From Amoebophrya sp. AT5.2 (taxonomy: Eukaryota; Sar; Dinophyceae; Syndiniales; Amoebophryaceae): a stretch of 30,334 nucleotides of DNA. Positions 3,838 through 26,706 of the stretch are shown here, piece after piece. Positions within the stretch are counted from its first letter, which is position 1, and every line of letters starts with the position of its first letter. The notes beneath the pieces were generated by a model. It made no database searches. It was not told the DNA's origin and worked only from the letters and a program-made list of their open reading frames with translations. Where the stretch lies: assembly GCA_005223375.1 (NCBI GenBank), contig RXOD01004054.1, positions 1 to 30,334 of the forward strand. Direction: 5' to 3'. A program made the translations under genes and the position numbers.

Positions 3838-5392
3838 TCATGGCAACTTGTCCGTCATCTCGGGAACTGCGTCAAAGAGGTCAGCAACTAATCCGTAGTC
3901 CGCGATGGAAAAGATTGGGGCGTCCGGATCCTTATTGATTGCGACGATCGTCTTCGAATCCTTCATCCCGGCGAGATGCTGAATCGCGCCACTTATCCCC
4001 ACAGCCACGTAGCAGTCTGGCGCCACTACCTTACCGGTTTGACCGACCTGCGAGATTTTTTTTTCAAGATTGTTGAACTCAACAACTGAATATACTTATC
4101 TTGTTCTTGCTGCTGCTGCTTTCCAAGAATAGTCTATGACGGGTCTATCTTTTTTACAAATATCAACACGAGTGCGGCAGCTGCATTGTAATAAAGATTT
4201 GTGCCTGCATGTCGTTTGCGCAGTATCCGGCGTCCACCGCTGCTCGCGAGGCGCCCATGGCGGCGGACATTTTGTCGCAGAGCGGTTGCAGCACCGTGTC
4301 GAACTTGTCGGCGCTACCAAGCGCTCGCCCTCCGCTCACGACCACGCTCGCCGAGCCGAGCTGCGGCTTGTCGTCCGACTTGGTCGATTCGCTGACGAAC
4401 TCACACTTCCCACTTACAAAGGACACCTCCTCGATCGCTCCTTCGGTGCCTGCGTTGGTGGTGATAGTACAAAAGAATGTAGGGGGCTGAAGCCTTGATG
4501 TCCTTGCTGGTGGCTTCCGTGCACGAAGCAAACTGCAGGTCGCGCGGTTACGAACGCAGTAGAGGTAGACAGTCACAGCGCTAGTTGTGTTGAATGAAAA
4601 GAAAAAACCGCAGCAGATTTTCATGGTTTACTGTCCTCAAGAAATGTGGAAATCCTCTTCGCGCAAGTACGTACCCGTCTCCGCCGCCATCTCAAACGCG
4701 GTTGGGCGCACGGTAGCTATGACCACGTCTTCCGTCGACTCTACTGTAGCGATGGCGTTGCCGGCATACATTGGCCGCTTGAAAGCCTTCGCCGAAACAA
4801 CTTCTGTGATCTCTGATATCGGCTGCACGTCCAGCAGTGCTCCCACGCGGGGCAAAGTGTCGCGCCCAACGTCTCCCGCCGCCGCAAAGATGTGCTTGAA
4901 GTTCTGCGTTTTGGCCAGATCTGCGATTACCGGAGCCCTGGTGTTCACGTGTTGTAGTCGTTTCCGATTCCCTGGTTGTTGCTTGAATGATGTGCGGTTG
5001 CATTGATTGGCAGTGAGTGGTCGCCTAAGCAAGGTTGAGGTGGCGGTGGGCCTGGGCAACTCAACATCGCCAAACGAAAATCTTCACTAAATCAACTACA
5101 ACATGAACAATGTTTATGTTTTATCAATCGAGTAAGTATATTACAGTGCATCCGCGGTCTTCGCGCCGCTGGCTAGGTACGTCTTCCCAAGCTTTGAGGT
5201 TTTCGCAGCAGCCTCGGGTGTTGTCGCAATGAACGATATGTCGCCACCAACCTTTTTCGCCGCTGACACAACAGCGTAGGTTGCGCTGCTGACGCCCGTC
5301 TTCGCATCGGAAGCAGCCACAACCAAAGTAGAGAAGTTCCGCCGACGAAAGGCCTGCACTCCACGCGCTTTCTGCAGAATCCGCGGATGCAT
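3838..5392 (-). CDS. ETFA: Electron transfer flavoprotein subunit alpha, mitochondrial (4 exons)
   Basis: Exons are 5145-5392, 4675-4937, 4205-4449 and 3838-4047. They join to 966 nt, 321 residues plus TGA, close to the usual length of about 330. The start [20 protein letters not shown] is Arg-rich with no acid, as in a mitochondrial presequence, and is followed by STLVVAA, where mature alpha subunits begin. The middle (residues about 83-170) carries [20 protein letters not shown] and YAGNAIATV. The FAD-binding C-terminal domain has [34 protein letters not shown] and the family signature [13 protein letters not shown]...VAIN (residues about 265-290), with Cys where Leu or Ile usually precedes Tyr. 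With the beta subunit, the protein would carry electrons from matrix acyl-CoA and amino-acid dehydrogenases to ETF-ubiquinone oxidoreductase. Two introns are GT-AG. The third is GC-AG and interrupts the FAD domain exactly between Gln252 and Val253. Confidence 0.95.
4048..4204 (-). other. ETFA intron 3, GC-AG, with a CAGG duplication at its ends
   Basis: This phase 0 intron of 157 bp is fixed by protein continuity: the exons must join as NDMQ then VGQTGK. The donor reads CAG/GCACAA and the acceptor TCGCAG/GTC, so there is no GT at the 5' end. CAGG occurs at both junctions, so the exact cut is ambiguous within four bases, as expected if an insertion duplicated its target. AAATCT occurs near both ends. 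A short perfect hairpin (TTGTTGA, two-base loop, TCAACAA) sits near the 3' end at about 4070-4085. Confidence 0.9.
4450..4674 (-). other. ETFA intron 2, GT-AG
   Basis: This 225 bp intron has donor GG/GTACGT and acceptor AACGCAG/GC. Joining restores [10 protein letters not shown] across the junction and keeps the frame (phase 1). The intron interrupts the variable linker between the two ETF alpha domains. Confidence 0.92.
4938..5144 (-). other. ETFA intron 1, GT-AG, with near-terminal inverted repeats
   Basis: This 207 bp intron has donor CT/GTAATA and acceptor CACCAG/GG. Joining gives ADALAPVIADL, as the family requires. Sequence near one end (4943-4958) matches, as an inverted repeat, sequence near the other end (about 5094-5107). 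The core TGTTGTAGT is identical, GTTCA flanks it on both sides, and the only difference is a two-base insertion. The arrangement resembles the inverted repeats of mobile introns (introner elements). Confidence 0.92.
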
Positions 5393-10917: not shown

Positions 10918-13900
10918 CTACACCGTCGCCGTGATTTCTGGACGAGCGTATTCTTCTTGCTCGTCGTTCGTGGACTGCAAGAATGACGAAGACGACGTCA
11001 CCAGGGGTTCGCTTCCTAGCAATGCCCCGTCTGGTCCGACGTTATTTCCGCTGTCGCCTGGCTCATCGCCCTCTACCTGAGGGAGGTCGTTGCTGCGGGT
11101 TGCGTCTTCGAGGGACACGCCATCTTGTTCTGTGTGCGATCCCCCGGGGTAGGATTTTTTGAATCTTATCCCAGCGCCGGTAGCCGGTACGTAGGGTCCC
11201 CCAAGGTCCGTCACTTTCCCGAGCCACGCGAGGTTCCATACACTCGTAGAGACGCCCGGTCGACACGCATTTACGTCGCTCTGGTAAAAGACCTTCTCCG
11301 CTGGCACCCAGTACATCTGCTGGCTTTCGGTGTGTGTTTCCAGAGAATCGATGTCGACGATTACTGAATTTTTACTTTGCGGGCTCGCGCCCTCTCCCTC
11401 TTCCGAAGACTCGTCCTCAGGGGTGTCGTGCTGGTCCCCCACCTCTCCCGCGTCTCCCCTGGAAGTTTCGGTTTGAGTTTCCAGGAAGGAGGTTGGCGCG
11501 ACCGACGGCGCAAACCGTGGCAAGCCCATCGCCTGTAGCAGCTGAGCAGGTGACTGCCGCATTTCAGCCGCTAGCTGATCCAAGTCGTACTGGAGCATGT
11601 AGTCCCGCAGCGTCACTTTCGGATACTTTTTCTGGCTGTGCGTGCCATAGCCATTCCCGACCGTGTCGGTGTCGGTCCCCTGAGGACCGCTAGGAGTACG
11701 TGGTCCACCGCCCGCCGCGTCAGCTACGTTAATACCGTGGTTTTTCTCATTCTCGTTCCTCCTTCGATCCGGTTCGCCTTCGGATTCCCGCAAACCCCCT
11801 TCCTCTCGAAGTCCCTCTTCGAGGTCGTCCTCGCCCCGCGTCATATCCAACATGTACGCCCCCTCCAGGACCGTTCGTGGATAGATCACGTGGACCGTGT
11901 CGTCATCGTCCAGAGCGCGCGCCTGCACCTGCCACATGCCGAGGCTCGTCCCGCCCGTGCCTCGCTGCCAGTCGAAACGGATGAGCTCGCCGCGGTCCAC
12001 GCGGCCGTTCGCCCGGCAGATCACCACACTGTCCCCACCGCGGAGCACCGGGTCGGGGTTCTTCAGCACGCCGATCTTGCTGCGGGCCAGTGCCGCCTCG
12101 TACGCCTTGCGGAGCAGGACGATGTCGCGCTTCGTCCACGGCGTCAGCCCGCTCGCCGTCTTGTTGGTGGCGGCGTCGAAGGGGTCCCAGAAGAGGAACA
12201 ACTGAATGGCATTCGGAAAAATCTCCCAAAGCGAGGTGGACTGCGAGGACCCGTCGGGAATGCCGTCGTGAACTTTTCCGCGGTCCTCGTCCTCCTCGTC
12301 ATGCTCCAAGTACCTCGTTGGGCCGCCGACTGCCTCTTGCCGCAGCATCCTGAAGACGGGATTCCAATCGTTGTTGTTCTCGAGGTGCTGATTCTTCACG
12401 CGGCGAAAGAGCTCGTCGCGCGCTTTCGTCGACAGGTTCGCCAAAACTCGTTGCAAGGCGAACAGCTGGCGGCGAACCGTGCTGTAGTGTTCGTGGCTTC
12501 GCCCAAGCAGCCCGCCGGCGTCCCGTGTCTGCTGCGACGGCCAGTCCGTGGTGTGTGCCTCCCAGTCGGGAAGCTGGTCCACAAATAGCGGCAGTCTCAA
12601 TCCCATGCCCGGCTCGACCGTTGGGATTTGAAGGTAGGCCATGATCAGTTTCCGGTACGCGTGTTCGGTCTGCGCCTGTCGAAGATCGCGCGACATGTCG
12701 GCACTGCTTTGCATCTCGGTCTCGGAGTGCGCAGACGTAGACGTTGGTGGACTAGGAGTGGGCTGGGGCGGTGCCTCCGCTTGTGTATGCGTTCCTCCGC
12801 TTACCTCTGCAAAAGAACTACTTGTACTTCTGGGAGGGGCTGCGGCCATCGGTTCTTCATCTTCGACCTCCTGCTCCGCATCCTCTGCTTCCCCAGCACC
12901 CTCGTCCCTGTGGTCCTCCCATCTGGGGCCGTCCACGATGATGAGGCACTTGAAAAACGTACGCAGCTCCTCGGCCCCCCCGCACATGTCGGCCATATCG
13001 CGGAATATCACCGTGCAAAGGTGGCCGTCCCGCATGCCTCTCAAAGCCGCGCACGTATCGGGCGGGCAGGGAAGGTCCCGGTCACCGGCGCTCCCCCGCA
13101 CGTAAGTGTCGTAAATCGTGTCGTCAATGTCGCTGGCTCCGGCAAGAACTTCTTCCACCGCACCCAGTGCGACTTCCGAGGCGGCCGCGTCCTCCTCCGT
13201 GTGGTCCCTTGTTGCTCCTTCCGTGCCAAGGCCGCTAGCTCCTCCGGTTGTATCTTCATTTCTGCCGCCGCCTCGGCCTCGTCCCCCATCGCTAGTAGCC
13301 TGGCCTTCTGCGGCAGCGTTCCCACCCGTCTTCGACGATATTCTCTGCGCCATTTCGAGAAGAGAAGAAGATTTCTTCTGTTGCGCTGCGCGTCTGTGAT
13401 CCTGGATAGGGCCGGCGTCCCCGGCGCACGACGGGTCAAAAACTCCGTCGCTCGTCTTTCCGCCGCCGCCTCCCGTCGCCGGTTCCGCGTCGTCTCCACC
13501 ACACGAGTCTCCGCAGCTAGAGGTCGTGCTTTTCTTCGCTTGTTCTTCCCCGCAAAAATCTTCGTCCGCAATGTCGCTGTCATCGCGGTCGTAGTCATCC
13601 TCGTCGGGGTCCACCCCGGACTTGGAGGAGCCGCCGCTTTCGCCATTGCAACACGCCGAGCCAAGGACCAGTTTTCCGCCAAAACTGGGCGAATTATCTC
13701 CTGCTCCATTTTTGGAACCCGTGGAACTACTTTGACCTTCTTCCCCTCCGTCGCCACCACAGCACGAGGTCGTTTCTGCAGGTGCCCGGATTCCGCTCCC
13801 ACCTTTCGTGCTGGTGCTGTTCGTACCGGCGCCGCCGCCGCTTGCTCCCTTCTTGTCGTCGTCCTCGTCATCGCCATTGCAGCAGGCGGACATCGAGTTT

Positions 13901-16900
13901 ACCTTTGTCTTTGTGTGGCCATCGCCACCAGAAGTACCAGAATTATCCCCTCCTGTGCCGAACGAAGAGCCCGTGTCCCCCGAAGGCTTCGATCCGCCGG
14001 TAGATGAAGTCTTTGCACCACCTCCCGCTTTGTTGGTACTCGTGGCACTCCCGCCTTCACCTTCCTCGCGCTCGTCGTCTTCGCACCCGCCGGCGCCGTT
14101 ACAGCATTTGCAGTCTACCAAGACGTGGAAGTGGGGACCGCCTCCCTTTTGCGTCTTGTTCTTGTTCATCGCGACGTCGTCCAAGTCCTCCTCGGAGAGG
14201 CCGAATGCGTCGCTGAGCTTTATTCGTTTATGCGCGATGGGCTCTACCGATAGCAGTGCGGCCATAGGAACCGCGTAGCGTTCCGCCACGAAGTCATCCT
14301 CTAGCAGGGAGTTCGGAACGGGTACCACACCGGATGGCCCTGCAGCTTCTTCTAAAAACGCTGCAGCTGCGTGTTGTTGGGCTTGCCCCCGTGGCAGCTC
14401 CGCGTATGGCCGCTGTTCAGTCGAGGACATCAAACCAGCACTCTGGTGAGGAGTTGCGCCTGTCCCTGCGTGCGCCAACCCGAGTTGCCAGGCCTGGTCG
14501 GCGTCCTCACGGATAATCGCTGCGCACTGCGCCGGCCGCAAGCTATTTGCGTTGCTCCTCGCGTCCGGGCGCACATGCACGATGCCCGTGACGAATCGAA
14601 ACGCGTTCCAGTACCCAATATCGTTCGGGAACGTCACGAACCGCGCCATCCAAGCCGTCCGTGCAACCGCGAACTCGTGCCACAGGAACGCCGGGGCGCT
14701 GAGTATCCCCCGACCGTACAGGAGTAGCGCCAGCAACAGGCCCGCCTCCTGGTACCGCCTTTGCTCACTTTGGGAACCGAGGTTGGGGACCTTATCGCCA
14801 CGGTCCGCGAACAGAAGCAGATCGGTAACGACGGACAGCGCGAGCGAGGCCCCCACGGACCGGCGGAAATCCTCGGGCGGCTTCCGCAAAAATACTTTTA
14901 CGGACGTTGATGAATCTGCCTGCTTGCCACTACTCGCCAGCGGCGGAAGGAACGCCGCCGACGTACCATAATAGCACGACTGGGGCGAGACGGCTCGCCT
15001 AAGCGCGAACCTGCTTGCGTCCTGGTCGTAGCAAAACCCGGCTAAGCGGCACGTGCGCGCGTCACCGAATTTCGAGCCCATCGGGGAGGAGTGGCGGTAC
15101 TCTTCGTCAATGTCGCAATTCATTTCATCACTCGTCCCTGGAGTGATGGCTGCTGCATTTACGGAGGCGCTGCTGCTGCGTCTTCTTCCGCTGCCAGGAA
15201 GCGTGGTGCGCTTTTCGTAAGCGGTGAACTCGGACGTTGATGCACCAGACGAGGCTTGTTGTTCGCTTCTGCTACTACTGGGCGAATCCACGATCAAGGC
15301 ACCCTTGGACGCAAGAAAGCAGGCTCCCTGTGTGGAGTCGTAGACTATGCCCGGGCAGTGCCTCTCCAGGTCGGAACAAGCTTGCACGCACTCCCCGAAC
15401 CCGTCGTAGCGGCCCGCGCCGTCGTTTAGCTTCGTCCAGGTCTGTCCCGCGTGCTCCACAAACGTCTGCAGAGGCTTCGTCGGCTTCCTTTTCCCATTCC
15501 CTAGAAGATATCGTCCCTGGAGGGAAAGCGGTAGCAGCTGCGCTTTTGCATCTGCCTGGTCCTCGAGCCACTGTCTGCATCTTTTCGACACACGGTCTTC
15601 GTCAAAGAGCGTGAGACCCGGGTGTGAGACCGCCGCCTTAATCCGCTGGAGCCGTCGCACGTGAACCTCCGCAATGTTTCCCGGGACCACACACGTGTCG
15701 TCTCGGCACAGCAAGGAAGTCTGCCATTTCGACGCCGCCCCTGTTGCTCCCGCCGGCGCGTCTTCGGCACTGGTATCCGACGTCCCGCCGCGGTGGGAAA
15801 AGCACACCCGATTCATGTGCTTCGGGCCGCAGCCCTGGCCCTCTGCGGCAACGGCGGGGCAAGGCTGCCGCAGCTTGTAGGCAATGACTTCGTTGTCCTG
15901 CCCGTCCCCCCGCGCCAGCTTTTCCACACTGCAGGACACATCGGTGTTCTGCCGGAACGGAGGGTACTTTTTCGGGGAGGTGTCGACGGTGTCGTCGGGG
16001 CTGAGGGCGGGCTCAATCTCCGGAGAGGCGGAGCGACACAAACACCTCCAGCGCTTCCGCTTGGGCCCCCTAGACCGCCGACCTTTACGTTTACTGCTGA
16101 AAAGCCGTGTGAAAGAATTCCATGCGTTCCTGATAAATCGTAAGGGATTCCATGGATCCTGCTTCTCTGGCACTGGTCCAAACCAGAAATAGGGTAGTGG
16201 TTCTCGGGCCGCCTGAAATAGGCCGCTGTATTCGCTGCACTTTTCTGCACACATTTCCGGGGTAGTGATATCCGACCAGCCAGTGCGCTTCGAGCCCAGA
16301 GCCGCCCAGCTACTTCCAGGCGGAATCCTGCTGCCTTGTACGTCGAACTTGGAATTCCACTTCTTCAGCTTCGTGAGTATGCGTTTTGCCTCCGCATCCC
16401 TAGGGCCCAAGGAATCCCGCGGACGCGTCGGCGTGAAGCAACCGACCTGCTCAAAACGTCGCAGTTTACAGATGGAAGCTTTTTCGAGCGCATTCCTGGC
16501 GACTAAATGTATTGGCGGCTTTTCCACGTTGAAGAGCGTGCAAACACTGTCGGTGGGAAACGGACCGCCAGTGGGCCGGTTGTTTACACCGGGGGTGAGA
16601 CTGAGTGCACTCCTCGCGCGCTGCTGCGACGAGGCCCCACGACCGGCCGCCGAAGATGCCCCGCCACCGCTACCCCCGACGTCTTCCCCAATCGCGACGA
16701 ACACGAAGCTGTGACACCTCTGGTCGCGTTCGCACGCTTCGAAACACGCGTCGATCGTCGGGTACTTAAAACGAGCGCTGCAGCCCTCTAGCCCGCACCA
16801 CGGCTTCAGCCGCATCTCTGCTGCACTATCCGGAGTGGAAATGTCGTCCCCATCCGTCTCAGCGACCGAGGTGTCGTCGTACTGGATAAGTGCGGAGGGC

Positions 16901-19900
16901 TCGGATCCGAATGGACAAGGGTTGGAGTTCCTCGTTTCGTCAGCGTGCTCCGAATGAAGACGCGGACGGCCAAAGGGCCCTTCGGGCTGGTCGCAAGGGG
17001 TCTGCGACCAAACGAATTGCTTGGCGCTAGCAGCGCCATCAAGACGAGTTAACATTGGTACAGAGGACCCGCTATGGCTACGATTTTCTTCTTCTTTCCC
17101 GAGCTCCATTGCTGACCACGCGGGGTGGTTCGGCTTGTTGTGCGCTCCGGTGAACGGGTTGGGTAGCTGCGCGCCGCCGACGCGTTGTCCCAGCAGCTGG
17201 GGAATCGCGTTCATCACTTTCCGCCCGATTGTCTCGCCCAGCCTTGGACAGCGAATCTTCACTCCACTTCGGTCCTGCGCCTCGTCCTCGTCGTGTAGCA
17301 GCAGCTCCGCTTTAGTGCACAAGCGGAACCTAGGGGACAGGCCCGCGTGCGCCCCTGGGTTCATCAGGGGGTGCGCGCAAACTTCCTTTGCTGTGCGGAG
17401 CGCCACGCTGCGAAGCGCGGCCCCCGGAAATGAGGCCCCGCCCAGGAGACGCGCTGCTGTTGATCCCGCGATTCGACTGGGCAGAAGGCCGTCCTCCACG
17501 ATGGAGCGCGGACACATCCTCGCCCTCTCTTCAGGCAAAGGCTCATCAGCTTCCTCCGACAGCTTGCAGCACTGCATCCCCACGCCGGGTGCTTCCTGCG
17601 GCAAGCACTTCGCAAGATTATCCGCGGCAGCCGCTGCGGGCCGTGGCAGGGATTGAGCTGCACCTGCTGGGTGTGCCCGATCGACGCTGTGTAACAGTGA
17701 CGCGATTTGAAAAACTGGAATTGTTGGCACAGCCCCCGAGGCTGCGCGTGCCGCTGCGCCCGGCTCCCGTACAACGGCCCAATAGTTCGAATCCGGCGAC
17801 CGCACGGCCGACGCGGTCCAGATTCGCTGGTAGTCGAATTTGCATTCCGCGTTTTCGCCCTCCGCCGCCTCCGCCTTACCCGCTTCCGCTTCGTGTCGCG
17901 TGCAGAGCCGCATCCGGTTCCTGCTCTCCGCGCCGGTCGCGAAATAGAGCGAGTCGCACAAATACTCCGCCTCCTTGTAGGTTCTGTCCTTGAAATTTTC
18001 GCACGTCAGCGGGGACTTGCCATTGTTCGGCAGCAGGCCGTAATTTTCGACAACGGTGGGCACTTTCTCCCCAGCCAAACTGCAGCACCGCACGTGGTGG
18101 CGCTCGGACGTAGTGTCAGCAGCGCGGGTTGGAATCCGGTGCCGCCCCGCCGGGGCGCCCGCGACGCTGTAGACCGTCGTGCCCGCGCCGGGAGGCAAGT
18201 CACAGGTCGTGCCGCTCCAGACTCGCATGTTGTCGAACCAACACCCCGTACCCTGCGTCGCGTCTTGCTGCAGTTCCTCCGCTGTGCAGAGCCGTAAGCC
18301 GCTCTCGGAACAGACGTCCTTTGCGTCCTCGTAGGTTTGTACCTGTAAGAAACGACACTGCGCCTCGACAGTCTCCCACCAGCGTTTCCGCCCCCCTTTC
18401 CTTGAAGGATCCTTGTAGTAGGCGGGCGCACTTTTGCCAGGAGTGCGCGATGTAGATGTGTGCGGCAGGTACTCGGCCATACGAGGCGCCTTTCCACCGT
18501 CTCCGGGCTTTTCCGGACAGCAGCGCACGGCGGCAGTCTGCGTCGCGCGGGTGCACTGGGGCGCAATTGTGTTCACGTTTCTGGCGGCCCCACTCAGCGT
18601 GAGGTAGCGCGGTACTGTTGTCGCATCGTCGCCCTTCATCTCGTCCTCGACCTCGAACGAGAATTTCAGAAAGCTCAGAACGCCCGCGGGGACGAGCGCG
18701 CGCGACGTCCTGGTAAGCTGCTTGTCGTTCCCTGAGGAGGTGTCAAACAGGGAGACCGCGTCGCCCGGCAACAGAATCGGCGCTCCCTCCGCCACCAGCA
18801 AACACTGCGGCACTTTGCGTGTGGGGAGCGGAGCTGCACCCCTATTGCCTTGCCGCGCGACGTCGGCCGTCGGGCTGCCGCTGCCCTCTTCAAGGAAAGA
18901 ACTGCTCCTTGTTGGCGCGGTCCCTGCAGCCGTTGCGCCCCTCCGTTGGCCGTGCCTGTTCTGGCCGCGGCCAGGCCCCAAGGCCGCTTCAACGTCCATC
19001 TCGGCCGCGTCCCCGATCGGAACCTCTTGCTCCCAGTAGTTGAATCCGCCACAGCCGACGACGTAGTCGCACTTCCGCCGGCAGCTGCTGACCGAAACGC
19101 CCGTTTTCACGATCCACTTTAGGTCCTCGCTCGGTGTCGAGCCCGTCGCGGCATCGGCGTCCTGTTGCGGCGCCCCCGCGCTCGTGAACATGTACGGACT
19201 GTACAGAAAGCGTGTCGAGTACAGCGTGTAAGGCGTGTTCGTCTCCGCAAAGTCCTCGTCGACGTCGGACTCCGACAAGCACCTTCCCCCGGTCGCGCTG
19301 CACTGCCCGGGCGCCGCCGTGTACCCGTTGGGACAGCGTTCGCACGTGCCGGGACTATCCCCCGACACGATGCTGCAGCACTGGCAGGGCTCGCAAACGC
19401 CCCGCTTCGGATCACAGTCGCGGGGCACGCTGTCGTGGCCGCTGCGGTCGCGGCGCGTCGTGAGCGCATCAAACGACGGACAATCCGACAGCGTCATATC
19501 AATGTCGCTCTCGACGTCCCGCCCCATCCCCCATCGTCCGCCCAACCCCAAAAGCTGCATCAGTCCCGGGCGTGGGTTCGTTCCGGCGCGCCGTGCTCGG
19601 GCGAGGGTGCGCGCTGCGATTTTCCTCATGGTCCGAAACAGCTGGCGCTTCAGCGGAAACCGCGGCGCATACTTCGGCGGCCCGCGGGTCAGATCGCGCG
19701 ACCCGATCCGGCACATCACGAGGAAGCTGCGGTGCTGCCGCGGGTCTCGCTCCCGGTTTGCACCCCGTCCCAGCAAGTCATCATTGTCCGACGTGCCCGC
19801 GAAGTTGCGGAGAACCTCGGTTGCTTCCGAGGAAACCCTTGCGCCCAGACTCGACCGCCGCAGACTCACGCGGCCCGTTCGCATGTCGAAGCTGCAGCCG

Positions 19901-22164
19901 AGCGGAATCAGCTCCTTCGAATCCGCAACTTCGATCGAGGTCTGCTCGTTGAGCAGTACGGAACTGAATCCCAGCTGCCGTAACGCGTTCGCGCACTCGC
20001 CTACCGTCGTTATGCTCGACCGACACCGCTTCCGACCGCCCGCCCGGATTGCGTAGGCCGTCCGCATGCACACCGGTTTTTTCGCCCAGCGCGAGCCGCA
20101 GGACCGCACAAAGGCTGCACCATCCGCATTCCGGATCGCACGTTGCCGGTACACGAGACACGACGACGCCGAGGACGCGTCATCTGTTGCCGGCGTCGTA
20201 TCCTCGTCCTCGCCGACTGATGACACCGTCTTCAGGTTCGTCTGAACCCGACCGACGCGGCGACACATAGTGAGCCACGCGTGAGTGCGCGCGGTCGGTA
20301 GCTGCCACGTCGCCGTCGTGCCAGCATACATCCAGCGATTTCTCCACGCAACCGACCGCGAACGAGTCATCTGCTCGGAGCTGCGGTCAACGCGGCCCCA
20401 CGCGTCGGTGGGCGGAAAGCTTGTGCCTCGCGCGTTGTTCATAAAGGCCACATCCGAAACGTAGGAAAGACCCCCTAGGCCGCCACTTGTTTCGTCTGAA
20501 GAAGTAGTGGCGCCCGAGCCAAGGAACGCCTCGTCGCTAGCGACTGTGGCGATCGAGGCAAGTGTGTGCAGTGGGAGAAAAGCTTCCAGCATCTGCTGCA
20601 TGCAGTCGAGGGCTGCCACGACGTCTGCTCTGCTCGAAGATTTTGGGGCGCCTGTGTACGCGTACAAAATTTTGTCTGACGCAGACACCAAATTCCACAA
20701 ATCTGCTGCGGACTCAAGCACTCTGCGGATCTCGTTGCGCCATACTTCGGGCTTCAGCCGAAACGCGCTTTCCGCGATGTTGTCCTCCGCAGTTTCGCGC
20801 ACAACAGCCGGATGCGTCCCGTAATAGTCCCCGGGCGCGGTCGCGCTGCCGATGCCGTGCGGCGTAGCGTCGAAAGGTGTCGCGCCTCCGGGGGGTTGCA
20901 CGGCCGCAGCAACAACTGGAGAAGTAATTGCAGCTGCGTCGGCTGCATCCGTGTAGTTTCGATTCGAATACCCGGTTGCAAGCGGCCCCGCCTTTCCCTT
21001 TTCGCCACCGTCGGTCGTCTCCGCTCCAGACTTCTGCAGAAAGACGCTCCAGAGCGCACTCGGCTCCGCTTTCTCCAGTCTCTCCTCCCCCGTCTCTGGA
21101 TCGACCACCTTTTTCTTTCGTGGCGCGAGAAACTTGCTATGCGAACTGAGCGCAAAACTTCCCTGACGGTCCCCCGGTGCTGCTTCGGGCAGACTCAACA
21201 GCTCCACGGCGCTATTCCACATCACCTCGAGGAACGATCGGGACTCCGCCAATGCACCTTGTGCGCTGTAACCGTTTCCACCTGATGTGGTGGCTCGAAC
21301 CGAGCCCGGCAACAGCGCGCTGCACGTGCTCTGTAGGCGCTCAGCAGGCTTCTTCCAGGGCGGGTCCTCGTGCGGAGGCCGCAGGATGTCCACCAACGGC
21401 TTCAGGAAGTTAGCCTCCTTCCGCGCCCCGCCCCCGGCTCCTGCTCCCCCTACTAGCGTTGACGTTCCCGGCCCCGGCGTCATCGGCACACTGTTCTTGA
21501 AAAAGTCGTCCCGAGCCTTTATCATCGCCCACAAAATCTGTTCCCCCGCCTCTTCTCGCTTCACCGAGGCGAACGGCGCCACGGCTTCCTGCAGCAGACA
21601 TTCCAGTTTTTTCATCCCCGCCGTTTCCAGGAAGCCAACAATCTGCGCCCGACTGGAGTCGAGGCTCCCCAGCAGCGCTCCGTTGCGGTGGTGCAGCCCG
21701 ATGGCAGCCAGACTGGCCGCGTTGCCGTGCAACACGCGGCGCCAGGTTTTCCAATTCTTCCCGGTGAAGCGAAACACGTCGAAATTCTCTGGAGTGTTCG
21801 CGTGCGAAAATCCCGCGCCTGAAAGCCCAGCTCCGAGGGCGCTCTCCGTCGTCCATTGTTCACTGGTGCTGGACCCGCGTGGAGTCGCATGCCGGCCCGT
21901 CACATGCTGGTGCTGAGAAAAGAAAGACGCTCCGTCGCGGTCATGGTTCTGTGCCCCCACGAAAGTCTTTTCTTCGTCGACCTCGGCGTCATGATCATCT
22001 TGGAGTTGGTGCTGTGGTCCTCCTCGTCCTCGCCCCCCAGGTATTAAACCTGGCTCGAGTTCAGCCTTTCCCGAATTCGACTTCTCAGCCGCGCGGCCAA
22101 CTGTGGATGCGACGAAAAGGGATGAAGAAAAAATCAGGCCCTTGACTTTCATGGTGGTGGACAT
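10918..22164 (-). CDS. Giant secreted mosaic Cys-rich protein, single exon, about 3748 residues
   Basis: One open frame of 3749 codons ends in TAG at 10918-10920. ATG at 22162-22164 (or 22150-22152) precedes a signal peptide, MKVKGLIFSSSLFVASTVGRA. The frame extends further 5' only through a GTG. From this start: a helical region with FDVFRFTGKNWKTWRRVLHG at about 127; a Cys module at 670-766 (GECANALRQLGF...IPLGCSFDMRTGRV); a compact Cys cluster at 914-964 (CEPCQCCS...CERCPNGY); a PAN/Apple-like module at about 1015-1100; three RLCT-type modules near 1273-1325, 1392-1450 and 1586-1727; a further PAN-like module at about 1786-1878; a WSC-like module at about 1906-2054; another PAN-like module at 2218-2293; a helical hydrophobic part at about 2421-2560; an acidic CC-rich repeat block at about 2676-2924; and helical C-terminal domains to about 3450. 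There is no clear membrane anchor. PAN and WSC modules usually bind protein or carbohydrate, so a surface or host-contact role is plausible but unproven. Confidence 0.85.
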   Translation of the reverse strand: MSTTMKVKGLIFSSSLFVASTVGRAAEKSNSGKAELEPGLIPGGRGRGGPQHQLQDDHDAEVDEEKTFVGAQNHDRDGASFFSQHQHVTGRHATPRGSSTSEQWTTESALGAGLSGAGFSHANTPENFDVFRFTGKNWKTWRRVLHGNAASLAAIGLHHRNGALLGSLDSSRAQIVGFLETAGMKKLECLLQEAVAPFASVKREEAGEQILWAMIKARDDFFKNSVPMTPGPGTSTLVGGAGAGGGARKEANFLKPLVDILRPPHEDPPWKKPAERLQSTCSALLPGSVRATTSGGNGYSAQGALAESRSFLEVMWNSAVELLSLPEAAPGDRQGSFALSSHSKFLAPRKKKVVDPETGEERLEKAEPSALWSVFLQKSGAETTDGGEKGKAGPLATGYSNRNYTDAADAAAITSPVVAAAVQPPGGATPFDATPHGIGSATAPGDYYGTHPAVVRETAEDNIAESAFRLKPEVWRNEIRRVLESAADLWNLVSASDKILYAYTGAPKSSSRADVVAALDCMQQMLEAFLPLHTLASIATVASDEAFLGSGATTSSDETSGGLGGLSYVSDVAFMNNARGTSFPPTDAWGRVDRSSEQMTRSRSVAWRNRWMYAGTTATWQLPTARTHAWLTMCRRVGRVQTNLKTVSSVGEDEDTTPATDDASSASSCLVYRQRAIRNADGAAFVRSCGSRWAKKPVCMRTAYAIRAGGRKRCRSSITTVGECANALRQLGFSSVLLNEQTSIEVADSKELIPLGCSFDMRTGRVSLRRSSLGARVSSEATEVLRNFAGTSDNDDLLGRGANRERDPRQHRSFLVMCRIGSRDLTRGPPKYAPRFPLKRQLFRTMRKIAARTLARARRAGTNPRPGLMQLLGLGGRWGMGRDVESDIDMTLSDCPSFDALTTRRDRSGHDSVPRDCDPKRGVCEPCQCCSIVSGDSPGTCERCPNGYTAAPGQCSATGGRCLSESDVDEDFAETNTPYTLYSTRFLYSPYMFTSAGAPQQDADAATGSTPSEDLKWIVKTGVSVSSCRRKCDYVVGCGGFNYWEQEVPIGDAAEMDVEAALGPGRGQNRHGQRRGATAAGTAPTRSSSFLEEGSGSPTADVARQGNRGAAPLPTRKVPQCLLVAEGAPILLPGDAVSLFDTSSGNDKQLTRTSRALVPAGVLSFLKFSFEVEDEMKGDDATTVPRYLTLSGAARNVNTIAPQCTRATQTAAVRCCPEKPGDGGKAPRMAEYLPHTSTSRTPGKSAPAYYKDPSRKGGRKRWWETVEAQCRFLQVQTYEDAKDVCSESGLRLCTAEELQQDATQGTGCWFDNMRVWSGTTCDLPPGAGTTVYSVAGAPAGRHRIPTRAADTTSERHHVRCCSLAGEKVPTVVENYGLLPNNGKSPLTCENFKDRTYKEAEYLCDSLYFATGAESRNRMRLCTRHEAEAGKAEAAEGENAECKFDYQRIWTASAVRSPDSNYWAVVREPGAAARAASGAVPTIPVFQIASLLHSVDRAHPAGAAQSLPRPAAAAADNLAKCLPQEAPGVGMQCCKLSEEADEPLPEERARMCPRSIVEDGLLPSRIAGSTAARLLGGASFPGAALRSVALRTAKEVCAHPLMNPGAHAGLSPRFRLCTKAELLLHDEDEAQDRSGVKIRCPRLGETIGRKVMNAIPQLLGQRVGGAQLPNPFTGAHNKPNHPAWSAMELGKEEENRSHSGSSVPMLTRLDGAASAKQFVWSQTPCDQPEGPFGRPRLHSEHADETRNSNPCPFGSEPSALIQYDDTSVAETDGDDISTPDSAAEMRLKPWCGLEGCSARFKYPTIDACFEACERDQRCHSFVFVAIGEDVGGSGGGASSAAGRGASSQQRARSALSLTPGVNNRPTGGPFPTDSVCTLFNVEKPPIHLVARNALEKASICKLRRFEQVGCFTPTRPRDSLGPRDAEAKRILTKLKKWNSKFDVQGSRIPPGSSWAALGSKRTGWSDITTPEMCAEKCSEYSGLFQAAREPLPYFWFGPVPEKQDPWNPLRFIRNAWNSFTRLFSSKRKGRRSRGPKRKRWRCLCRSASPEIEPALSPDDTVDTSPKKYPPFRQNTDVSCSVEKLARGDGQDNEVIAYKLRQPCPAVAAEGQGCGPKHMNRVCFSHRGGTSDTSAEDAPAGATGAASKWQTSLLCRDDTCVVPGNIAEVHVRRLQRIKAAVSHPGLTLFDEDRVSKRCRQWLEDQADAKAQLLPLSLQGRYLLGNGKRKPTKPLQTFVEHAGQTWTKLNDGAGRYDGFGECVQACSDLERHCPGIVYDSTQGACFLASKGALIVDSPSSSRSEQQASSGASTSEFTAYEKRTTLPGSGRRRSSSASVNAAAITPGTSDEMNCDIDEEYRHSSPMGSKFGDARTCRLAGFCYDQDASRFALRRAVSPQSCYYGTSAAFLPPLASSGKQADSSTSVKVFLRKPPEDFRRSVGASLALSVVTDLLLFADRGDKVPNLGSQSEQRRYQEAGLLLALLLYGRGILSAPAFLWHEFAVARTAWMARFVTFPNDIGYWNAFRFVTGIVHVRPDARSNANSLRPAQCAAIIREDADQAWQLGLAHAGTGATPHQSAGLMSSTEQRPYAELPRGQAQQHAAAAFLEEAAGPSGVVPVPNSLLEDDFVAERYAVPMAALLSVEPIAHKRIKLSDAFGLSEEDLDDVAMNKNKTQKGGGPHFHVLVDCKCCNGAGGCEDDEREEGEGGSATSTNKAGGGAKTSSTGGSKPSGDTGSSFGTGGDNSGTSGGDGHTKTKVNSMSACCNGDDEDDDKKGASGGGAGTNSTSTKGGSGIRAPAETTSCCGGDGGEEGQSSSTGSKNGAGDNSPSFGGKLVLGSACCNGESGGSSKSGVDPDEDDYDRDDSDIADEDFCGEEQAKKSTTSSCGDSCGGDDAEPATGGGGGKTSDGVFDPSCAGDAGPIQDHRRAAQQKKSSSLLEMAQRISSKTGGNAAAEGQATSDGGRGRGGGRNEDTTGGASGLGTEGATRDHTEEDAAASEVALGAVEEVLAGASDIDDTIYDTYVRGSAGDRDLPCPPDTCAALRGMRDGHLCTVIFRDMADMCGGAEELRTFFKCLIIVDGPRWEDHRDEGAGEAEDAEQEVEDEEPMAAAPPRSTSSSFAEVSGGTHTQAEAPPQPTPSPPTSTSAHSETEMQSSADMSRDLRQAQTEHAYRKLIMAYLQIPTVEPGMGLRLPLFVDQLPDWEAHTTDWPSQQTRDAGGLLGRSHEHYSTVRRQLFALQRVLANLSTKARDELFRRVKNQHLENNNDWNPVFRMLRQEAVGGPTRYLEHDEEDEDRGKVHDGIPDGSSQSTSLWEIFPNAIQLFLFWDPFDAATNKTASGLTPWTKRDIVLLRKAYEAALARSKIGVLKNPDPVLRGGDSVVICRANGRVDRGELIRFDWQRGTGGTSLGMWQVQARALDDDDTVHVIYPRTVLEGAYMLDMTRGEDDLEEGLREEGGLRESEGEPDRRRNENEKNHGINVADAAGGGPRTPSGPQGTDTDTVGNGYGTHSQKKYPKVTLRDYMLQYDLDQLAAEMRQSPAQLLQAMGLPRFAPSVAPTSFLETQTETSRGDAGEVGDQHDTPEDESSEEGEGASPQSKNSVIVDIDSLETHTESQQMYWVPAEKVFYQSDVNACRPGVSTSVWNLAWLGKVTDLGGPYVPATGAGIRFKKSYPGGSHTEQDGVSLEDATRSNDLPQVEGDEPGDSGNNVGPDGALLGSEPLVTSSSSFLQSTNDEQEEYARPEITATV
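13395..14135 (-). repeat. Acidic CC-rich protein repeat block inside the giant gene
   Basis: Within a Gly-, Ser-, Thr- and Asp-rich stretch, short Cys-pair units recur: CKCCNG near 14110, SACCNGDDEDDD near 13875, TSCCGGDGGEEG near 13757 and SACCNGESGG near 13645. FCGEE and SCGDSCGGDD follow near 13550 and 13510. Between units the protein is low complexity with almost no hydrophobic residues. Paired Cys beside acidic runs could bind metal ions or form disulfide cross-links; neither is shown by the sequence. Confidence 0.8.
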
Positions 22165-23107
22165 TTCCAGGAGAGGGACGAGGAGGGCGCGCGTCACACT
22201 CCAGCGTCCTCTCTGTTCTAGATGACTCTGTGAATACTCATGCTTTGCTTTGCAGTTGAGCAGAAACACCACCGCAAAAACAAAGCGTTATCACCAACGC
22301 CAAGCGTCGTTGATGAACCATCATGGGGTGGACCACGGTCTTCAGATGAAACTCCAAATTTGCTTCGTTGTAGTCGTTTCCCCTATGAATTCATTTACAT
22401 TTTCCTAATTCTGGGTAGTCTAGACAAAAGCATTATCTCTACTAACTTCGGCGTATTTGATGCTATCGTCAGCTGCGTTATCAAGCATTTATTTTGCTTG
22501 AATTTCATAGATACTGCATACTGACTACCGGGCTCAGGCATGCATTAATGGTCCTGATGTGGAAAGGTGATGGAGGTGGTGCGAGCAGAAACAGAATAGG
22601 AAAACTGCGGGGTACTACTAGCAGGAGCTGCAGCACCAGCACGAGCACTACAAATACAATCAATTTTTATTACGAGGTACTTTGACGACGGTACGACGAC
22701 ACGAGAACGACGGAAGCAAAAATCATCACATGCAACAGCGAAACCGAACGTGTGCGTCGCGGAAAACGAAACGATGATGCATGCGGACGGATGCGGAATC
22801 GCGAGGCTCACGGACTAGAAAAAGAGATGAAGATCATGATGTAGCGCGAGTGCCACGGGATTGATTCAACGAGGTACGTTTTAGATGACGACGAAGGAAG
22901 CAGCACCTCAGCTGCAAAGTAGGCACGGACTGTCTCATACGTCGACCGATGAGAAGACAGCATCAGAAAAAACGGACTCGATTTCAACACGTGATCATAC
23001 GCACCAGTGGCCCGCTCTTGTTTTCCACCGTAATCCTTGCTTTGTATGTTCTTTCAAGCGACGACCAGTCCTCGGTTGTTCATCCTTTTCTTTTTTCCCA
23101 CTTCTAG
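22165..23107. other. Intergenic spacer upstream of the giant gene
   Basis: This AT-rich spacer of about 940 bp would carry the giant gene promoter and the 3' end of the COA6-like gene. GTTGTAGTCGTTTCC at 22367-22381 is identical to 15 bases at 4951-4965 in the inverted repeat of ETFA intron 1, so a 5' untranslated intron or element remnant is possible here. I see no coding frame. Confidence 0.45.
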
Positions 23108-25952: not shown

Positions 25953-26706
25953 TTTGGTTGTGGCGCTGGCAAGTTCTACTCGGCCTCGGCCAGTGTCTTC
26001 AGTGATCGGAAGAACAACAAGTTCATTGGTCGAGGAATCCAAACCTTTTTCTTACACCTAGCCCTACCGCACCCATGTCCAGTACATCCGGGTGCGATGC
26101 ATTCTGCCAGATTTTTCCGACGTTTTGGTGGGAAGGCACAAATACGGGAGCTCAGGGTCGGGTCGGTGGCCGCTGTTGCAATCAGATGTTTCAAACCATC
26201 GCATCACCATGTGAGTGCGACTCACAGCCTCTATCTCTACCTCTATCTAGTCATCAAAGTAAGAAAGTTATATTAAATTAGTAGCGCCAGCAGGAGACGC
26301 AGACGGAAGAATCAAATTAAATGAGTTCTTCGACGGCGAATCACAAAGCGAGCCCGAGAACTGCTTACGGAAGCACATTTTTTCTCATTCTCTCGTCTCA
26401 CTCTCTCATCGCTAAACATCGCAAATATCAATCGCAACGACGGCGCCGAACAACAAGTGGTCATCTCTCGTTTCAAAATACGTACGCGTGTTTTGCGTTT
26501 GTTCCGAAGGTATTTCAATTGCATCTTTGTCAATTTGCGTCCCATGAATGTGTACTTATCTCGTCGAGGACACCGTAGCAATGTAATATTTCAGCAGCAG
26601 ATGCAGAAGTGAGCCTTGCTGCCGCGCAACATTGGCGCGGGCTGCCGCACGGCATCTGCGCTGCTGGTGGGCGTGGGCGGAAGATGCTGACTGCCTCGTC
26701 CAACTA
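25953..26706. other. Intergenic spacer
   Basis: This is about 750 bp of AT-rich sequence between IMP4 and the RING-CH gene. It holds a short imperfect repeat, CCTCTATCTCTA/CCTCTATCTAGT, near 26229-26252. A very basic minus-strand ORF near 26312-26545 has an ATG but low coding quality, and I do not call it. Nothing else is recognisable. Confidence 0.5.

What the first reader, a model, noticed from the sequence alone, without database searches (positions are those of the whole stretch)
10918..22164. An 11.2 kb intronless gene for a giant secreted mosaic protein
A signal peptide is followed by about 3700 residues with many Cys-rich modules and no membrane anchor, in one uninterrupted frame. Two recognisable housekeeping genes next to it (ETFA, IMP4) carry introns. 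A secreted protein of this size and module order matches nothing I know and could be a surface, host-contact or matrix protein of an alveolate.
Basis: partly seen in the sequence, partly recalled or inferred. Interest (0 to 1): 0.75.

Follow-up and report, generated by a model that had tools for sequence, protein, structure and literature searches.

The report
Giant intronless secreted PAN-module protein gene
A marine dinoflagellate-type microbe carries a very long, apparently intron-free gene for a huge, probably secreted, cysteine-rich protein built partly from known sticky modules; the gene is real, but very long unbroken genes are common in this genome.

Summary
The frame is real, on the minus strand: ATG at 22164, TAG ending at 10918, 3748 residues. 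ETFA and IMP4 neighbours are interrupted. A public model of the same gene (EukProt g154.t1) removes six in-frame stretches as introns. These have exon-like G+C (0.58-0.63; neighbour introns 0.37-0.48), no stops, and one holds half of a PAN module, so I judge most of them false; their codon score is only intermediate, so RNA must decide. The genome is dinoflagellate-type: 18 exact spliced-leader copies, none of the reversed control. Pfam supports two PAN modules; other modules are by eye. Two searches of 5.8 billion proteins found only the gene itself. Giant frames are ordinary here: three others of 2000+ residues in 200 kb sampled; 8 of 27 PAN_4-bearing frames are 1000+ residues, up to 6716. 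Best reading: a secreted modular adhesive or matrix protein, one of several giant single-frame PAN/WSC genes. The signal peptide coincides with the most splice-acceptor-like tract of the gene, so the protein's start is unproven.

The parts
10918..22164 (-). Coding frame of the giant protein, 3748 residues from ATG to TAG
   Evidence: coding statistics
22090..22164 (-). Signal-peptide-like N-terminus (MSTTMKVKGLIFSSSLFVASTVGRA)
   Evidence: Sequence; uncharged 11-residue stretch with mean hydropathy 1.9, seventh highest of 45 sampled frames; no predictor run
22101..22131 (-). Pyrimidine tract followed by CAG inside the signal-peptide codons: possible (trans-)splice acceptor
   Evidence: Highest pyrimidine fraction (0.82) of 310 YAG sites in the gene plus 436 bases upstream
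18793..19110 (-). PAN-like module 1 (by eye only)
   Evidence: Cys pattern; no Pfam match for that piece
18067..18381 (-). RLCT module copy 1 (C..TYEDAKDVC..LRLCTAEEL..GTGC.FD..VW..T.C..RCC)
   Evidence: 47% identity to a second gene on C1739, E 9.7e-12; module-only search E 3.0e-13
17551..18018 (-). RLCT module copy 2
   Evidence: 33% identity to copy 1 in a two-row alignment
16975..17532 (-). RLCT module copy 3, degenerate
   Evidence: Partial pattern by eye; aligned poorly, 14% identity to copy 1
16468..16803 (-). PAN module 2
   Evidence: PAN_4 E 6.3e-5, below its cut-off; 50% identity over 36 residues to PAN-bearing frames on C49 and C458
15868..16455 (-). WSC-like stretch by eye; not supported by tests
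   Evidence: No Pfam match; window absent from 22 WSC matches at E <= 1 in the genome
15265..15453 (-). PAN module 3
   Evidence: PAN_1 22.5 bits, cut-off 21.4; whole protein PAN_1 30.6 bits, E 3e-7
14965..15120 (-). Trefoil-like Cys pattern by eye; no Pfam match
   Evidence: piece without Pfam match
14683..14739 (-). Most hydrophobic 19-residue stretch (1.79), unlikely membrane helix
13483..14115 (-). Gly/Ser/Asp-rich stretch with repeated CC(N/G)G clusters
21787..22050 (-). Stretch 1 skipped by EukProt model g154.t1 (264 bases)
17683..17811 (-). Stretch 2 skipped by the model (129 bases)
16879..17181 (-). Stretch 3 skipped by the model (303 bases)
16096..16719 (-). Stretch 4 skipped by the model (624 bases); cuts PAN module 2
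12673..12867 (-). Stretch 5 skipped by the model (195 bases)
11455..11850 (-). Stretch 6 skipped by the model (396 bases)

Best explanation
A protein-coding gene of a dinoflagellate-type genome, probably a syndinian parasite like Amoebophrya, read from one long exon. The product enters the secretory pathway, its Cys-rich middle third folds into disulfide-bonded PAN and PAN-adjacent modules that bind carbohydrate or protein, and the low-complexity and Cys-pair stretches act as linkers and possible cross-link sites. I think it is released or displayed as an adhesive or matrix protein (dinospore coat, extrusome content or host-contact layer). Shown: the long frame, two PAN modules, paralogous modules elsewhere in the genome, dinoflagellate spliced leaders. 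Inferred: secretion, disulfides, single exon in the mRNA, organism, and the adhesive or matrix role.
For: 3748-residue stop-free frame. PAN_1 E 3e-7 over its cut-off, PAN_4 E 6.3e-5; PAN modules are, from general knowledge, extracellular binding modules. Related modules in C1739 (with four Kazal stretches), C49 and C458 (both PAN). Other giant frames with the same kinds of modules: C700, 3298 codons, 9 WSC and 2 PAN_4 matches; C75, 6716 codons; C420, 2808 codons. Six stretches skipped by the public model have G+C 0.58-0.63 against 0.37-0.48 in neighbour introns and 0.47-0.49 in noncoding stretches, none holds a stop, and the product of their stop-free chances at their own composition is about 2.5e-10. 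No confident membrane helix. Spliced leader: 18 exact, 50 with up to 2 mismatches, reversed control 0. Sampled G+C 0.556 (mean of 20 pieces) against 55.92% for Amoebophrya AT5.
Against: The public model splices out six stretches at places where GT..AG can be placed. In 5 of 6 their codon score lies below the 5th percentile of equally long kept pieces, and the reading frame scores best of six frames in only 3 of 6. The signal peptide coincides with the best acceptor-like tract. No relative outside the gene itself in two searches, so no conservation supports the frame. Predicted folds were poor (mean pLDDT 50.1 and 35.9). Assembly size and contig number (50.7 Mb, 2759) fit no Amoebophrya assembly in the tables I saw, and the recalled MALV-II probe found nothing.
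Confidence: 0.5

Rival explanations
1. The gene is spliced as in EukProt g154.t1: six GT-AG introns whose lengths are multiples of three, giving a 3117-residue protein.
For: The model exists and its kept parts match the window letter for letter; each gap can be placed with GT..AG. Codon scores of the six stretches are lower than those of kept pieces.
Against: All six are stop-free, multiples of three and exon-like in G+C. Stretch 4 would cut PAN module 2 in two (Pfam match at residues 1839-1860, cut after 1851). Stretch 2 starts inside RLCT module copy 2.
Confidence: 0.2
2. The 5' end is wrong: the mRNA begins at a trans- or cis-splice acceptor at about 22101, so the ATG and signal peptide are not translated and the start lies downstream or in an upstream exon.
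For: The tract TTTTCTTCATCCCTTTTCGTCGCATCCACAG has the highest pyrimidine fraction of 310 YAG sites; only 4 of 2967 such sites in 45 sampled frames reach 0.82; spliced leaders exist in this genome.
Against: Codons for a hydrophobic signal core are T-rich anyway; another acceptor-like site lies upstream at 22556 (0.75); the public model also starts at this ATG. PAN modules argue for secretion independently.
Confidence: 0.2
3. A membrane-anchored giant receptor-like protein with its anchor near residues 2512-2530 and an inner C-terminal part that is poor in Cys.
For: Best hydrophobic stretch 1.79; very few Cys after residue 3109.
Against: Arg and Pro inside the stretch; the CC(N/G)G clusters would then lie inside the cell.
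Confidence: 0.1

Closest known systems
PAN/Apple-module secreted proteins (Pfam PF00024, PF14295)
   Same: Signal-peptide-like start plus two Pfam-supported PAN modules.
   Different: Size of 3748 residues, with large unmatched N- and C-terminal parts and unnamed RLCT modules; no related protein found outside the gene itself.
Giant WSC/PAN frames of the same genome (C700, C75, C420 and others)
   Same: Single open frames of 2808-6716 codons carrying PAN_4 matches; C700 also has 9 WSC matches.
   Different: The window protein has no WSC match; the whole-segment searches did not pair it with those frames.
LCCL adhesive-like proteins (LAPs) of Apicomplexa and LAP-like proteins of dinoflagellates
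   Same: Secreted, modular, adhesive-type architecture; LAP-like proteins are reported in Amoebophryaceae (PMC11285972, passages).
   Different: No LCCL, ricin, F5/8C or SRCR module appeared in the Pfam scan of the window protein.
TSP1/vWF adhesin candidates of Amoebophrya
   Same: Proposed host-contact proteins of the same kind of parasite (PMC6176090, passages).
   Different: No TSP1 or vWF match in the Pfam scan.

Membership tests
PAN-domain protein | PAN_1 match over the curated cut-off | tested here: met
   30.6 bits against 21.4 for the whole protein; piece alone 22.5
PAN-domain protein | Several PAN modules | tested here: inconclusive
   A second module matches PAN_4 at 23.4 bits, below the cut-off of 27; a third is by eye only
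WSC-domain protein | WSC (PF01822) match | tested here: not met
   No match for the piece; the window frame is not among 22 genome matches at E <= 1
C-type lectin-like or Link fold (RLCT module) | Fold match of the module | tested here: inconclusive
   Model of mean pLDDT 50.1; 0 of 30 Foldseek matches at E <= 0.001
LAP / LCCL protein | LCCL module | tested here: not met
   Pfam scan of the whole protein lists only PAN_1 and PAN_4 at E <= 1
Secreted protein | Cleaved signal peptide | not testable with these tools
   Sequence and hydropathy only; 5' end unproven
Retrogene with relict spliced leader | Leader remnant upstream | tested here: not met
   0 matches of the 15-base leader end in the window with up to 3 mismatches; chance mean 0.82
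Dinoflagellate-type genome | Canonical spliced-leader sequence | tested here: met
   18 exact copies, reversed control 0; leader letters recalled

The most novel reading that the evidence does not exclude
This genome makes a lineage-specific set of giant, single-exon secreted proteins, up to about 6700 residues, assembled from PAN, WSC, Kazal and the unnamed RLCT module, which form the dinospore coat or extrusome contents used to stick to and enter host cells. Ordinary gene prediction has chopped them into false exons, so the set has gone unseen.
Probability: 0.3. Interest if true: 0.6.

Novelty: new member of a known kind. Interest (0 to 1): 0.35.

Why it matters
If giant single-exon PAN/WSC proteins are a real group here, they are natural candidates for host contact in a parasite group whose adhesion proteins are little studied, and they show that public gene models of such genomes may cut long exons into false introns. 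By itself the window gene is one ordinary-looking member of a genome rich in very long frames.

Tried and rejected
WSC and trefoil readings by eye: not supported by Pfam. C-type-lectin-like or Link reading of the RLCT module: the order of predicted helices and strands looked right to me, but the model is of low confidence and no fold match was significant. Structure of PAN plus WSC-like stretch: mean pLDDT 35.9, not used. RLCT module search in the protein collection: 54 candidates, none at E <= 0.001. PDB by sequence: 0 at E <= 1. Repeated SFLE motif: 3 copies in the protein, 0 of 2000 shuffles reach 3, picked after seeing it; genome-wide the codon pattern for SSFLE occurs 56 times against 55 for the reversed control (only TCN serine and CTN leucine codons covered), so no genome-wide export motif. 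Retrogene origin: no leader remnant in the window. MALV-II probe (recalled): 0 matches up to 1 mismatch, inconclusive because rDNA may be missing from the assembly; the SSU family search did not complete. Literature: searches for dinoflagellate with WSC domain (4 papers, none on this by title and abstract start), for PAN domain with WSC and extrusome (0 papers), for Amoebophrya with PAN or Apple domain (the three Amoebophrya papers listed show 0 occurrences of either) and for giant genes or long exons in dinoflagellates gave no report of this gene group; library is open-licence PMC only.

Full report
1. Observation. The frame is on the minus strand: ATG at 22164, TAG at 10920-10918, 3748 residues; the plus frame has many stops. 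At its own base composition a run of this length has log10 p near -52. Codon positions have G+C 0.62, 0.54 and 0.70. ETFA and IMP4 are confirmed by Pfam, and the gaps between their coding pieces have G+C 0.37-0.48 over 4 gaps (boundaries by eye). These genes, the giant frame and a RINGv-bearing frame all lie on the minus strand.

2. A rival gene model. The protein search returned one relative: EukProt g154.t1, 3117 residues. A residue walk shows the same gene with six stretches left out (88, 43, 101, 208, 65 and 132 codons by the lengths: 264, 129, 303, 624, 195 and 396 bases). By eye each gap can be placed with GT..AG. For the single-exon reading: all six are stop-free in frame, G+C is 0.58-0.63, and stretch 4 holds half of a PAN module. 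Against it: codon scores (-0.061 to 0.068) lie between coding (about 0.10-0.12 mean) and noncoding stretches (-0.37 to -0.20); 5 of 6 fall below the 5th percentile of kept pieces; the true frame scores best of six in 3 of 6. A gene finder would pick just such weak stretches as introns, so I favour one exon, but RNA must decide. I do not know what evidence stood behind the public model.

3. Organism. The dinoflagellate spliced leader (letters recalled) occurs 18 times exactly and 50 times with up to 2 mismatches, with 0 in the reversed control. PMC10624901 (passages) says the leader is highly conserved in dinoflagellates and more variable in perkinsids. G+C of 20 sampled pieces is 0.51-0.62, mean 0.556, near Amoebophrya AT5 at 55.92% (PMC7789003, section 5), whose introns are almost all GT-AG. 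Size and contig number (50.7 Mb, 2759) do not match AT5 (87.7 Mb, 2351 scaffolds), and a recalled MALV-II probe found nothing. So: dinoflagellate-type, perhaps a syndinian; species not settled.

4. Anatomy. Signal-peptide-like start; a Cys-poor N-terminal part to about residue 700; a Cys-rich middle (about 700-2440) with Pfam-supported PAN modules, an unnamed module with the pattern RLCT (copies 1 and 2 clear, copy 3 degenerate), and by-eye PAN, WSC and trefoil resemblances that failed or were not reached in tests; a Gly/Ser/Asp-rich stretch with Cys pairs (2720-2930); a C-terminal part almost without Cys. The best hydrophobic stretch is weak.

5. Relatives. The middle segment (1161 residues) matches itself and 4 other places on 3 contigs at E <= 0.001: C1739, C49 twice, C458. 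The C1739 frame carries Kazal modules, the C49 and C458 frames carry PAN. The N-terminal 1194 and C-terminal 1395 residues match only themselves at E <= 0.01. In 5.8 billion proteins, two searches with different regions returned only g154.t1; both scored only about 2000 candidates sharing most words and only proteins of 0.55-1.75 times the length, so distant or shorter relatives would be missed. A third search with the C1739 module returned none.

6. Is the length special? In 230,334 bases (six contig pieces of 30-40 kb, from the long end of the assembly, plus the window) there are 45 non-overlapping frames of 300 or more codons; four exceed 2000 codons (3789, 3263, 2619, 2166), one being the window's. 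Two of the other three carry RdRP and PDEase modules, one has none found. Genome-wide, 31 PAN_4 matches at E <= 0.01 fall in 27 distinct frames (my count by contig and frame length), of which 8 have 1000 or more codons and 4 have 2000 or more: 6716, 3789 (the window), 3298 and 2808. Of 22 WSC matches at E <= 1, 9 lie in the 3298-codon frame of C700 and one weak one (E 0.24) in a 3085-codon frame of C615. Published Amoebophrya tables list longest exons of 79.7, 44.0 and 14.8 kb. So giant unbroken frames are a habit of this genome, not a mark of this gene.

7. The 5' end. The signal-peptide codons contain the tract TTTTCTTCATCCCTTTTCGTCGCATCCACAG, the most acceptor-like of 310 YAG sites scored (0.82); a second upstream site scores 0.75. 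The IMP4 acceptor scores 0.75 and one ETFA acceptor 0.43. A leader added at 22101 would remove the ATG. Signal-core codons are T-rich by nature, so this is a caution, not a disproof.

8. Mechanism. Best reading: a secreted, disulfide-bonded modular protein that binds carbohydrate or protein through PAN and related modules and serves as adhesive or matrix material. PAN modules carry this role in other organisms (general knowledge). Work on Amoebophrya has so far looked at TSP1 and vWF proteins as adhesin candidates (PMC6176090, passages), and LAP-like proteins were reported in Amoebophryaceae (PMC11285972, passages). No expression, location or binding data were available.

9. Verdict. Observation confirmed; interpretation partly supported; a new member of a known kind, of moderate interest, more as a pointer to a group of giant PAN/WSC frames than on its own.

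Noticed in passing
G000 C75 about 26216-26323 (+): A PAN_4 match (E 0.0055) lies in an open frame of 6716 codons, about 20 kb without a stop; not read further.
   Followed up: no
G000 C700 5143-12015 (-): Open frame of 3298 codons with 9 WSC and 2 PAN_4 matches.
   Followed up: no
L006 4336-9999 (-), C2 14336-24124: A 3263-codon frame carries a cellular-type RNA-dependent RNA polymerase module (PF05183, E 3.9e-41), suggesting RNA silencing in this organism.
   Followed up: no
L022 (C1739): A frame with a long GKDMYSGAK-type repeat, one RLCT module and four Kazal stretches.
   Followed up: partly
window 4048-4204 (-): The third ETFA gap seems to begin with GC, not GT, if the exon ends at the conserved MQ (boundary by eye).
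   Followed up: no
window 10918-22164 (-): Motif SFLE occurs 3 times in the giant protein, more than in any of 2000 shuffles, but its SSFLE codon pattern is not enriched genome-wide.
   Followed up: yes
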